DNA from: Paludibacteraceae bacterium
GTDB taxonomy: Bacteria > Bacteroidota > Bacteroidia > Bacteroidales > Paludibacteraceae
Reading direction: 5' to 3'
DNA: 64,000 nucleotides
NCBI GenBank assembly: GCA_905233415.1
Contig: CAJOEX010000002.1
Span: forward strand, 56,951 to 120,950
This document shows positions 38,030 to 42,064 of the stretch, in pieces. The first letter of the stretch is position 1. Each line of letters begins with the position of its first letter. The translations under genes were made by a program, and so were the position numbers. Below the pieces are notes generated by a model, which saw only the letters and a list, made by a program, of their open reading frames with translations, made no database searches and was not told the origin of the DNA.

Positions 38030-39052
38030 ATGATAGATGCTTTTGAGCAATTGATAGTGCTGAATCCGTGGACAATGGCAATAGCCATTATTGTGGGCTT
38101 TGTGCTGCTTATATACGGTGCGGATTGGCTTGTCGAGGGCTCCAGTGATCTTGCACGTCGTTTCGGCGTCAGCTCGCTGGTTATAGGATTGACTGTGGTG
38201 GCGTTCGGGACATCCATGCCGGAGTTTATCGTCAGCACCATTGCCGCCATTGAAGAGAATACGGAAATCGCGATTACCAATATTCTTGGCTCCAACGCCA
38301 TCAATACGTTCATTATTCTCGGTTTCACCGCACTTATTTACCCTATTGCATCCCAACGTTCAAGCAGGGTTTTTGATATTCCGGTTAGCATCTTGGCGGG
38401 TATTCTGGTGTTTTTGTTTGTAATCTATACACCTCCTACCACATGGTCCTGGGACAACCTCGGCTCGTTCAGTTTGGATAACGGGGCTATCACCCTTTGG
38501 GGCGGTATCATTCTGCTGCTAATTTTCTGCTCGTTTATGGTGCACAGTTTTCATATTGCCAAGAGAAATCCCGATGAAAGCGGAGAAATCCGTCTCTTGC
38601 CAGTATGGAAGATGCTGCTTTTGATAGTGCTCGGCTTGCTTGGTTTGGTGCTTGGCGGCGAGTTGGTAGTCCGTGGTGCCACAGGCGTTGCTCAAACGCT
38701 TGGTGTAAGCGATGCGGTTATTGGGCTGACGGTGGTGGCATTGGGGACATCTCTTCCCGAACTGGCTACCAGTTGCGTTGCCGCAGCCAAACATAACAGC
38801 GACCTTGCCTTGGGCAATGTCATCGGCAGCAATATATTCAATGTGTTCTTTATCCTTGGTGTCGGTGCCGTTATTCACCCGCTTCCCGCATATCCGGGCT
38901 TGTGGTTGGACGCTGCAATGGTCGTGCTGGCATCAGTAATGGTCTGGCTGTTCGTCACTTTCACCAAAAAACACGAGATAAAGCGTTGGCACGGCGCCTT
39001 GCTGGTGTTGGTTTATGCCGCTTATCTGACATATCGTCTGATGTGCATCTAA
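38030..39052 (+). CDS. Calcium/sodium exchanger (CaCA family)
   Basis: Two alpha repeats: GTSMPEFIVSTIAAIEENTEIAITNILGSNAINT and GTSLPELATSCVAAAKHNSDLALGNVIGSNIFNV. Confidence 0.93.
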   Translation: MIDAFEQLIVLNPWTMAIAIIVGFVLLIYGADWLVEGSSDLARRFGVSSLVIGLTVVAFGTSMPEFIVSTIAAIEENTEIAITNILGSNAINTFIILGFTALIYPIASQRSSRVFDIPVSILAGILVFLFVIYTPPTTWSWDNLGSFSLDNGAITLWGGIILLLIFCSFMVHSFHIAKRNPDESGEIRLLPVWKMLLLIVLGLLGLVLGGELVVRGATGVAQTLGVSDAVIGLTVVALGTSLPELATSCVAAAKHNSDLALGNVIGSNIFNVFFILGVGAVIHPLPAYPGLWLDAAMVVLASVMVWLFVTFTKKHEIKRWHGALLVLVYAAYLTYRLMCI

Positions 39053-39062
39053 TCGTTGAAAT

Positions 39063-40907
39063 ATGAATAAGTTACGCTATAAAATAGACCACGTACTGAG
39101 TGCCGGAAAAGGAACACAGATTCTTTGGTTGGCGCTGATAGTAACGGTTCTTTTCGGTATTTTCTTCGGTATTAACGCCCTGCTTGAGAAGCCGCTCAGC
39201 ATATACAGTCTGGTAGCCTTGCTTCTCAGCCCGGGTGAGTTCCGGCAGGAAGGGTATCTGCCTTTCCAGTTGGTTATCAACCTCATCGGTCTGGTGGTGG
39301 TCAGCAGTATGCTCATTTCCCTGTTGAGCAATATTGTTGAGAATCGGGTGGATGATTTTACCCGCGGTGTTGTGCGGTACAAGTTTAAGGATCATCTGTT
39401 GTTTTTAGGAGCGGACGAAATGCTGAAAGACACCATAGAAGGCCAGTTCTACACGGATAAAACCCTTCCAAAAGCCGTTGTGGTGCTCACAGCCCAAGAT
39501 GCTGCCGAGGTCCGCAAGCGTCTGATGGCGGAAATAGCTGACAGGAAAATTCGCAAGCGTTTGGTAGTCCTTTACGGTGACCGCACCCAAAGCGAGCAGT
39601 TGATTTCAGTCTGGGCTCAGACAGCCCGTCGCGTATATATCTTAGGCGAGCCTGGCGAGCCGGACCATGACACCAAGAACACCCTCTGTCTGCGCGAACT
39701 CAAGGACCTTGGCACTCCTACGGAGTGTTATATGACCTGCGACCATCTTTCAACGCTCCGGATTATGCAACTGCAGACAGAGCCGCTTCCGCCGACGTTC
39801 CATCTCACAGTGACAAATGCGCTGGAAAGTTGGGCGCAGCGGGTATTAGTCAATCAGGACGGTTTCCCGAAACTCTACCGGAAAGATCGTATCACGGGAG
39901 ATGATGACGAATATGTGCATCTGGTGCTTATCGGTGCAACCCAGATGGCGTATGCATTGGCCATCACGGCTGCACATATAGCCCATTATCCGAATTTTCT
40001 TACCAAACAGCAGCGAACCCGTATCACTTTTATAGACAATAATATAGAATCACACCGCGATTTCTTACGGGGGCACTACGAATCCCTTTTCCGCCTTTCA
40101 CGCCAACGTTATACATGGTTTGAACGCTCCGAAGCGGATATGCAACCGCACACGGAAGCATATATTCCTGATGCAGACTTTGACTTCCTTGATATTGAGT
40201 GGGAGTTCATATCTGCCGGAATTGAATCGCCCGCCGTCCGCGACCTTTTGTCCCAATGGAGCAATGACAAGCAGCAAATGCTGACGGTTGCCTACTGCCT
40301 GCCGGAAATAAAGGCCAATCTTGCGGCTGCATTATATGCGCCCGATGATATAATGACACAGCAAATACCGCTGCTTATCTACCAACCGACCAATGATGCG
40401 CTTGCAGAGTGGACGAAGGAGTTTACCCGTTATAAGAATATTTATCCGTTCGGTATGCGGCAAGACTGCTACGACCAGACTTCCCGTCGTCGTATGCGTT
40501 GGGCAATGGAGGCCAATGAAGCATACGAAGACAATGCTGCCAAACTGAACCCGCAACGCAAACGCAAGTCCTGGTACGACCTCAAACTGACACTCCAGTT
40601 CTCGAACATGTACAGCGCCAATTATTGCTACGCGGTTTTGCGGCAAACAGAAAAGCAGTACTATGCCCGTCTGGAGCATCAGCGTTGGATGACGGAGCGT
40701 CTGTTATTGGGCTACAAGGCGATGGAAAAAGCGGAGCGTCTCCGCATTGAACATACGCCGGAACCCGAACGGCAACGCCTGATGAATGCGTGCGAACCGT
40801 ACTTTATGCACCCGAATATCCAGCCGTTTGAGGAACTGACACCCGAAAGCATCCACAAGGACGAGGTAATGACCGAGTGTCTGAGTAATAAAATGAAGAA
40901 TCTATAA
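39063..40907 (+). CDS. Two-TM channel-like protein with RCK/TrkA-N-like cytoplasmic region and C-terminal RyR-like domain
   Basis: RLKYRFD-like start (MNKLRYKIDHVLSAGKGTQILWLALIV), LLSPGEFRQEGYLPFQLVINLIGLVVVSSMLISLLSN, FLGADEML / VVVLT / VLYGD Rossmann-like segments, C-terminal LEHQRWMTERLLLGY...MHPNIQPFEELTPESIHKDE (RyR-like). Confidence 0.6.
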   Translation: MNKLRYKIDHVLSAGKGTQILWLALIVTVLFGIFFGINALLEKPLSIYSLVALLLSPGEFRQEGYLPFQLVINLIGLVVVSSMLISLLSNIVENRVDDFTRGVVRYKFKDHLLFLGADEMLKDTIEGQFYTDKTLPKAVVVLTAQDAAEVRKRLMAEIADRKIRKRLVVLYGDRTQSEQLISVWAQTARRVYILGEPGEPDHDTKNTLCLRELKDLGTPTECYMTCDHLSTLRIMQLQTEPLPPTFHLTVTNALESWAQRVLVNQDGFPKLYRKDRITGDDDEYVHLVLIGATQMAYALAITAAHIAHYPNFLTKQQRTRITFIDNNIESHRDFLRGHYESLFRLSRQRYTWFERSEADMQPHTEAYIPDADFDFLDIEWEFISAGIESPAVRDLLSQWSNDKQQMLTVAYCLPEIKANLAAALYAPDDIMTQQIPLLIYQPTNDALAEWTKEFTRYKNIYPFGMRQDCYDQTSRRRMRWAMEANEAYEDNAAKLNPQRKRKSWYDLKLTLQFSNMYSANYCYAVLRQTEKQYYARLEHQRWMTERLLLGYKAMEKAERLRIEHTPEPERQRLMNACEPYFMHPNIQPFEELTPESIHKDEVMTECLSNKMKNL

Positions 40908-40918
40908 CTTTCAACGCC

Positions 40919-42064
40919 ATGGAAGAATACAAATACTATGCGTTTGTCAGCTACCGCAGTAGTGACGAAAAGTACGCCAAATGGCTACAGGACAAGATTG
41001 AAGCATATCGTCTGCCTACGACGGTACAGAAGATGAATCAGGCATTGCCCAAGAAGAAACTGCGGCCTTGCTTCCGTTACCATACGGATATCCAGCCCAA
41101 CGAACTGAAAACGGAGTTGCGCAATAAATTGGATCAGTCAAAGTATCTTTTGGTCATCTGTACGCCCCGTTCCGCACAATCGCCGTGGGTAGGAAATGAG
41201 ATTGACACCTTTGTGGAACTTGGCCGCCGCGACAGGATTATTCCGGTTATCGTGGAAGGCAAACCTTATTCGGGAGATCCTGCTACCGAGTGCTACAATC
41301 CATCCCTGATCAAGCATTTCCCTCATTCGGACAATATCGCCGATGACCGTGAGATTCTTGGCGTGAATATCCATGAAGAGGGAAAGGGAAGCGCCTATAT
41401 GAAGCGTGAACGTGCTGTCATTCAGATTGTCAGCCGTATGCTGGATGTCAATTATGACCAATTGTGGAACCGCCAGCGCCGCCGCATTATTACGCGCACC
41501 GTTGTTTCCACGCTGCTGAGTATTGTTTTTGTGTGCACTTTGGCGTTGACGTGGTTCTACAATCAGCCGTTCACTTCGCAGGTAAAGCTTGCGGAAAGTT
41601 CTGTTCATAATGCCAATCTTCCGGTTTTGCAGGATGCGGTAGTAACCCTTTCTTTGGGCAATGAAACAAAGACGGACACCCTTAAAAGTATCGATGAAAG
41701 CGGCATTTTCCGTAATTTGCCGGCTCGTATGAAGGGCAAAGAAGTGCGGCTCATCGTAACGGCACAAGATTGGCTGACGACGGATACAACGCTCGTTCTG
41801 ACCGAAAATATCCAATTGCTGATAGCTCGTAACCCGAAAGTATATGGTCATGTGGCGTTGACAGTTCTGCAGGATGGAAAACTGTTGGAAAACACGCCGC
41901 TGCAACTGGCAGGACATTTGGTGAAAACGGATAAAAACGGCCGTTTAGAGATGGATTTACCGCTTTCGGAGCAATCTACAGAATATCCGCTCATCAATCC
42001 TGCCAACGGCAAGGCTACGATGGTATTTCCGCCTTTCGGACCCAATGATGCTGCAGAGCTTTAG
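40919..42064 (+). CDS. TIR domain protein with one TM and C-terminal extracytoplasmic beta domain(s)
   Basis: YYAFVSYRSSDEKYAKWLQDKIEAYRLP; LVICTPRSAQSPWVGNEIDTFVELGRRDRIIPVIVEGKP; TM TVVSTLLSIVFVCTLALTWFY; carboxypeptidase-regulatory-like tail. Confidence 0.88.
   Translation: MEEYKYYAFVSYRSSDEKYAKWLQDKIEAYRLPTTVQKMNQALPKKKLRPCFRYHTDIQPNELKTELRNKLDQSKYLLVICTPRSAQSPWVGNEIDTFVELGRRDRIIPVIVEGKPYSGDPATECYNPSLIKHFPHSDNIADDREILGVNIHEEGKGSAYMKRERAVIQIVSRMLDVNYDQLWNRQRRRIITRTVVSTLLSIVFVCTLALTWFYNQPFTSQVKLAESSVHNANLPVLQDAVVTLSLGNETKTDTLKSIDESGIFRNLPARMKGKEVRLIVTAQDWLTTDTTLVLTENIQLLIARNPKVYGHVALTVLQDGKLLENTPLQLAGHLVKTDKNGRLEMDLPLSEQSTEYPLINPANGKATMVFPPFGPNDAAEL

What the first reader, a model, noticed from the sequence alone, without database searches (positions are those of the whole stretch)
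38030..42064. Candidate signalling or defence module: Na+/Ca2+ exchanger, 2TM/RCK/RyR channel-like protein and membrane-anchored TIR protein in one tight gene run
Seen directly: gaps are 17 bp (ychF to exchanger), 11 bp and 12 bp, with one upstream promoter-like box (36844) and a strong terminator (42082). Known: bacterial TIR domains can be NADases producing cyclic ADP-ribose-type signals. RyR domains also occur in prokaryotic proteins outside ryanodine receptors, and comparative-genomics work has proposed that they sense ligands. Inference: a TIR enzyme or sensor coupled to an RCK/RyR-regulated conductance and a Ca2+ exchanger would be a prokaryotic NAD-derived-nucleotide-to-ion-flux circuit, either stress signalling or abortive infection. 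Joint function is not shown by adjacency alone.
Basis: partly seen in the sequence, partly recalled or inferred. Interest (0 to 1): 0.85.

Follow-up and report, generated by a model that had tools for sequence, protein, structure and literature searches.

The report
TIR enzyme paired with RyR-domain channel
A gut/rumen Bacteroidales genome carries a two-gene unit in which a membrane-bound TIR immune-type enzyme is paired with an ion channel that wears a ryanodine-receptor (RyR) ligand pocket, which suggests, but does not yet prove, that this bacterium turns an NAD-derived nucleotide alarm signal into ion flow across its membrane.

Summary
In detail: four tightly packed genes, ychF, a CaCA exchanger, a 2TM/RCK/RyR channel and a membrane-anchored TIR protein, with a promoter-like box upstream and a strong terminator downstream. 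The exchanger is not part of the module: ychF-CaCA is a conserved pair in 43 of 44 genus genomes that have both, also where the RyR-TIR pair is absent or elsewhere. The RyR channel and TIR do belong together: in all 9 close loci they are neighbours, they diverge in step (Mantel r 0.95), and across 80 RyR-channel loci a TIR gene lies within about 8 kb in 38, against 1.1 expected. 21 sister CASTOR-type channels without the RyR domain have none. The RyR domain keeps all four pocket residues with which the phage RyR protein RyDEP binds 2'/3'cADPR (PMC13232231). Four relatives of this TIR lacking the channel have a Thoeris ThsA_Macro gene in the same slot. Best reading: a Thoeris-like pair in which the TIR makes an ADP-ribose-type nucleotide that opens a CASTOR-like RCK channel through its RyR domain. 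Signal, ion and anti-phage activity are untested. One preprint cataloguing TIR systems could not be read, so priority is unsure.

The parts
39063..40907 (+). 2TM + tandem RCK gating-ring + RyR-domain channel-like protein, 614 aa (proposed effector)
39111..39347 (+). pore domain: TM1 (res 17-40), pore helix, filter-position motif SPGEF (res 56-60), TM2 (res 66-95)
   Evidence: AlphaFold helices and hydropathy; aligned to CASTOR-type sister channels with DPG/DSG filter
39396..39887 (+). RCK1 (about res 112-275)
   Evidence: Slo-like RCK in 69/73 family members; DMI1/CASTOR profile match
39912..40457 (+). second RCK-like Rossmann domain (about res 284-465)
   Evidence: AlphaFold secondary structure and dual-RCK structural matches GsuK, Slo1, CASTOR
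40575..40904 (+). C-terminal RyR domain (res 505-614)
   Evidence: hhalign to stand-alone RyR proteins 94.8%, E 5e-8; RyR1 and B. thetaiotaomicron RyR hits in PDB profile search
40677..40862 (+). RyR pocket residues H539, W542, H583, D600, equivalent by alignment and spacing to RyDEP H75, W78, H100, D117
   Evidence: conserved in 72, 73, 69 and 72 of 73 family members; RyDEP residues from PMC13232231
40919..42064 (+). membrane TIR protein, 381 aa: cytosolic TIR, one TM (res 190-212), beta-rich region taken as periplasmic (res 215-381)
41198..41200 (+). codon of catalytic-position Glu94 of the TIR
   Evidence: E in 28/32 family members; G only in the four ThsA_Macro-associated relatives
42082..42118 (.). 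hairpin + U-run terminator closing the gene run
   Evidence: z -5.1
36821..36851 (+). Bacteroidota-type promoter-like box upstream of ychF (possible promoter of the run, not specific to the module)
38030..39052 (+). CaCA exchanger: upstream neighbour, judged NOT part of the module

Best explanation
The RyR channel and the TIR protein form a Thoeris-like signalling pair. The membrane TIR protein, whose predicted periplasmic region and (in relatives) secreted TPR and LRR partners point to envelope sensing, is activated by a stress such as phage entry and converts NAD+ into an ADP-ribose-type nucleotide (2'/3'cADPR or a relative). That nucleotide binds the RyR domain at the C-terminus of a CASTOR/DMI1-like tandem-RCK channel and opens its pore, so that ion flux stops growth or kills the infected cell. 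Shown here: the genes, folds, conserved catalytic and pocket residues, co-inheritance and neighbourhood. Inferred: NADase activity, the identity of the signal, gating, the ion, and the defence role.
For: 1) RyR-TIR adjacency in all 9 close loci and matched divergence, Mantel r 0.95, p 0.0008 for 8 taxa; r 0.97 with two distant loci added. 2) TIR gene within held flanks of 38/80 RyR-channel loci, 1.1 expected from the same genomes' TIR counts; 29/71 against 1.0 in the distant part; 26 are co-directional within two genes; 19 of 20 checked neighbours are Pfam TIR_2 and 19/20 have Glu at the catalytic position. 3) 21 sister CASTOR-type channels lacking RyR have no TIR in 268 kb (Fisher p 2e-5). 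4) Pocket residues of RyDEP conserved (PMC13232231). 5) Same TIR family with RyR channels in other families: RyRch-RyR-TIR-TPR-TPR (L110), RyRch-TPR-TIR (L112), and MscS + RCK-RyR + RyR + TPR + TPR + TIR (L111). 6) Four TIR relatives have ThsA_Macro in the channel's place (Pfam E 2e-33 and 7e-33 for the two scanned, all four by a local profile).
Against: No biochemical or phage data. PADLOC does not call the locus (best TIR E 1e-4, channel none). The ThsA_Macro-linked relatives lack the catalytic Glu, so their TIR may work differently and the effector-swap argument is weaker. About half of the RyR-channel loci show no TIR in the held flanks, so the RyR channel may also work with other partners. 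The ligand of this divergent RyR domain, which stays below Pfam's cut-off, is unknown.
Confidence: 0.6

Rival explanations
1. Envelope or osmotic stress circuit, not immunity: the TIR protein senses the periplasm with TPR/LRR partners and sets the channel through a nucleotide for homeostasis.
For: TIR proteins are membrane-anchored with a predicted periplasmic domain; partners are secreted TPR and BspA-like LRR proteins; one relative carries MscS in the channel's place; some distant loci carry ECF-sigma-like and M48-like genes beside the channel (by reading the sequences).
Against: Patchy distribution (RyR-TIR in 3 of 37 genus genomes, at different chromosomal places) fits an accessory defence gene better than housekeeping homeostasis; ThsA_Macro in sister loci.
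Confidence: 0.25
2. The TIR is a scaffold and the RyR domain binds another adenine nucleotide (ATP, ADP, NAD), so the channel is a general energy sensor and the TIR only tethers or modulates it.
For: RCK channels such as GsuK respond to ADP and NAD+ (PMC3510474 abstract); the RyR3 repeat domain binds adenine ligands (PMC13232231); four TIR relatives have lost the Glu.
Against: Every RyR-channel-type TIR in A2 keeps Glu94 and 19/20 distant channel-linked ones do too.
Confidence: 0.1
3. Adjacency reflects defence-island clustering only; channel and TIR act in separate pathways.
For: Several of these genomes carry many TIR genes (e.g. five in G072, the genome of L029, and six in G119).
Against: Tight co-directional spacing, parallel divergence, repeated pairing with the same TIR family in other families, no TIR near RyR-less sister channels.
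Confidence: 0.05

Closest known systems
Thoeris with TM-macro ThsA (PMC11204291)
   Same: TIR protein next to a membrane effector carrying an ADPR-type ligand domain; close TIR relatives here actually sit beside ThsA_Macro genes.
   Different: Effector is a 2TM tandem-RCK channel with an RyR domain, not TM-macro or SIR2-SLOG; the TIR protein is itself membrane-anchored with a second, predicted periplasmic part; no known ThsA family matches the effector.
RyDEP phage RyR-domain proteins (PMC13232231)
   Same: RyR-fold pocket with H/W/H/D residues that bind 2'/3'cADPR.
   Different: RyDEP is a small stand-alone phage protein that destroys or sequesters the signal; here the domain is fused to a channel in the bacterium. 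Stand-alone RyR genes also occur beside many of the channels.
CASTOR / DMI1 / POLLUX channels (PMC6697748)
   Same: 2TM pore domain and tandem RCK ring; sequence profile and fold match.
   Different: C-terminal RyR domain added; filter position reads SPGEF in this clade where CASTOR has AD265SGNHA and sister channels DPG/DSG.
Animal ryanodine receptors
   Same: Homologous RyR repeat domain on a cation channel; cADPR has been implicated in modulating animal RyRs (PMC13232231).
   Different: Unrelated overall architecture; one RyR domain, not tandem repeats in a giant receptor.

Membership tests
Thoeris | ThsB-type TIR protein | tested here: met
   TIR_2 1.9e-13, ThsB_TIR 8e-10, Glu94 kept; PADLOC ThsB only 1.8e-4
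Thoeris | Adjacent ThsA effector of a described family (SIR2-SLOG or TM-macro) | tested here: not met
   channel matches no PADLOC family and no ThsA Pfam
Thoeris | TIR makes an NAD+-derived nucleotide that activates the effector | not testable with these tools
   needs biochemistry
Thoeris | Anti-phage activity | not testable with these tools
   needs phage challenge
RyR domain family PF02026 | Passes Pfam gathering score | tested here: not met
   window protein no hit; 16/73 family members weak, best E 0.005
RyR domain family PF02026 | Profile homology and conserved pocket residues | tested here: met
   hhalign 94.8%, E 5e-8, H/W/H/D aligned; RyR1 1.5e-4
CASTOR/DMI1-type RCK channels | 2TM pore + tandem RCK gating ring | tested here: met
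CASTOR/DMI1-type RCK channels | Acidic filter residue equivalent to D265 | tested here: inconclusive
   S at that column in the window clade, E three residues on; D in other RyR channels shown

The most novel reading that the evidence does not exclude
A bacterial cADPR-to-RyR-to-cation (possibly Ca2+) circuit: a TIR enzyme makes a cyclic ADP-ribose isomer that directly gates a channel through an RyR domain, with stand-alone RyR proteins as off-switch or buffer, making RyR-domain channels a whole class of TIR effectors in Bacteroidales and linking the animal RyR repeat domain to bacterial immune signalling.
Probability: 0.3. Interest if true: 0.95.

Novelty: new variant of a known kind. Interest (0 to 1): 0.8.

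Why it matters
The Thoeris effectors described in the papers read here destroy NAD+ or act through macro-domain membrane proteins. An RyR-gated channel as the effector would add direct control of ion flux to TIR signalling. It would give a concrete bacterial system in which to ask whether RyR domains are receptors for cADPR isomers, an old open question for animal RyRs that the RyDEP work has just reopened, and could help explain why phages carry RyR proteins. It offers testable residues (E94; H539, W542, H583, D600), a natural control (RyR-less sister channels) and many ready-made loci.

Tried and rejected
Exchanger as a module component: rejected. Single-sequence Pfam/NCBIfam/PDB searches of the channel gave nothing useful; the alignment profile was needed. 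NCBIfam on four homologues gave only weak voltage-gated K+ channel matches. Viral contigs: no relative; phage records: one 29% partial match to the pore/RCK1 part; plasmids: none, so no sign of phage or plasmid carriage. Own genome has no Pfam-level RyR match (but the controls also rang nowhere, so uninformative) and no match to the TPR partner. Patatin, cysteinyl-tRNA synthetase and beta-propeller neighbours of some TIR relatives look incidental. Literature: Burroughs 2015 and the Yirmiya 2025 TIR catalogue are not held.

Full report
1. The observation. The four genes are present as described: ychF 36907-38013, CaCA antiporter 38030-39052, a 614-aa protein 39063-40907 and a 381-aa TIR protein 40919-42064, separated by 16, 10 and 11 bases. 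A Bacteroidota-type promoter-like box lies at 36821-36851 (the pattern occurs 27 times in the window on both strands, so it is weak evidence) and a stable hairpin with U-run follows the TIR gene. The gaps leave no room for a promoter between the genes, but promoters inside genes were not excluded.

2. What the two proteins are. The 614-aa protein finds nothing convincing by itself, but 69 of 73 family members contain Slo-like RCK. Its AlphaFold model (pLDDT 90.5) has two TM helices, a pore helix, two Rossmann domains and a helical C-terminus; Foldseek matches GsuK, Slo1/BK, CASTOR and MthK. The profile hits DMI1 (5e-8), CASTOR (1e-6) and, with the C-terminus, RyR1 (1.5e-4) and the 'putative ryanodine receptor' entry 3nrt (0.13). 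Profile-profile comparison of residues 505-614 with 26 stand-alone RyR proteins gives 94.8% probability, E 5e-8. The pore aligns with CASTOR-type sister channels; CASTOR's filter Asp265, needed for conduction (PMC6697748), is D in the other RyR channels shown but S in this clade, with a Glu three residues later. The TIR protein has a TIR domain with Glu94, one TM at 190-212 with arginines on the TIR side, and a beta-rich C-terminus; that the TIR is cytosolic and the C-terminus periplasmic is inferred from the positive-inside rule.

3. The pocket. In May 2026 a preprint (PMC13232231) showed that phage RyR-domain proteins bind or cleave 2'cADPR and 3'cADPR through H75, W78, H100 and D117. The aligned residues here are H539, W542, H583 and D600, with identical spacing inside each pair (3 and 17), conserved in 72, 73, 69 and 72 of 73 family members. 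H75 and D117 are the catalytic dyad of the cleaving phage enzyme, so the domain could be a sensor, a hydrolase, or both; of eight phage homologues tested in that paper six bound the signals and none cleaved them.

4. Do they belong together? In nine close loci (58-90% identity) the TIR gene follows the channel directly, often overlapping. Channel and TIR distances correlate (r 0.95), as expected of a unit inherited together, though common descent of the genomes contributes too. Six of these nine loci add a secreted TPR gene after the TIR, and all four upstream genes scanned (L019, L020, L021, L024) have BspA-like LRR matches. The window's own clade (window, L018, L033) lacks the TPR gene, and the window and L018 lack the LRR gene, next to the pair. 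Over 80 loci, 38 hold a TIR gene in the flank against 1.1 expected from TIR_2 counts in the same genomes. The near-locus search used an iterated profile, more sensitive than the Pfam count, so the ratio is somewhat inflated; but 19 of 20 near neighbours checked match Pfam TIR_2. The control is informative: 21 channels of the same type without the RyR domain have no TIR neighbour. They come from partly different families, and some contigs are short, which limits that comparison.

5. The exchanger. ychF and CaCA are adjacent in 43 of 44 genus genomes that have both. In the genomes looked at, other genes such as glycosyltransferases (by reading the sequences) follow the pair, while G033 and G035 carry RyR-TIR on other contigs. 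So ychF-CaCA is older and independent, and the RyR-TIR cassette joined it in the window's lineage (also L018). A functional role through co-transcription is not excluded.

6. The effector slot. Relatives of this TIR without the channel (39-44% identity: L100, L101, L102, L104) have a ThsA_Macro gene just upstream, the effector of TM-macro Thoeris (PMC11204291), and a TPR partner in three of four. In L111 an MscS-type channel plus a separate RCK-RyR protein stand in the operon instead. This looks like one TIR/TPR sensor with exchangeable membrane effectors. A caution: the macro-linked TIRs have Gly in place of the catalytic Glu, whereas channel-linked ones keep Glu.

7. Mechanism. Shown: anatomy, conserved residues, association. 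Inferred from families: the TIR is an NADase making an ADPR-type signal; the RyR domain is its receptor; the RCK ring couples binding to the pore. Speculative: which ion, whether Ca2+, and whether the trigger is phage. Patchy distribution, 3 of 37 genus genomes, fits an accessory defence system. Stand-alone RyR genes beside 43 of 80 channels (two members identified as RyR by Pfam) could damp the signal.

8. Relation to known systems. It works like Thoeris but is not filed as Thoeris: a described ThsA is absent and activity is untested. It is a distant member of the RyR family by profile and pocket, below Pfam's cut-off, and a CASTOR-type channel with an added RyR domain. In the searchable literature no paper found describes an RyR-bearing channel as a TIR effector, and the RyDEP authors do not mention one in the parts read; but the systematic TIR survey they cite could not be opened, and most subscription papers are not held.

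Noticed in passing
L100, L101, L102, L104: ThsA_Macro-linked relatives of this TIR all carry Gly where the catalytic Glu is expected, unlike the channel-linked ones; pseudoenzyme TIRs or a different chemistry.
   Followed up: partly
L111:4866-12358: MscS-type channel, separate RCK-RyR protein, stand-alone RyR, two TPR proteins and the same TIR family in one run: another channel seemingly coupled to RyR and TIR.
   Followed up: partly
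L031:9986-11326: SIR2-TIR fusion gene directly after an RyR channel, with a second RCK-type protein upstream.
   Followed up: partly
L029, L037, L066, L081 and others: RyR channels beside an ECF-sigma-like ~190-aa gene and a ~380-aa protein with RyR domain and zinc ribbon (RyR confirmed in L029).
   Followed up: no
L019, L020, L021, L024 upstream of the channel; L104:5744-7195: BspA-like LRR secreted proteins accompany both the RyR-channel and the macro version of the TIR/TPR cassette; candidate extracellular sensor.
   Followed up: partly
L147-L167: A widespread Bacteroidales family of CASTOR/DMI1-like channels without RyR domain.
   Followed up: partly
L022:8001-9931 and L112:9767-10987: Channel gene broken or shortened (L022 in two ORFs; L112 with stops inside the match) while the TIR remains open; possible inactivated effectors or assembly errors.
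   Followed up: no
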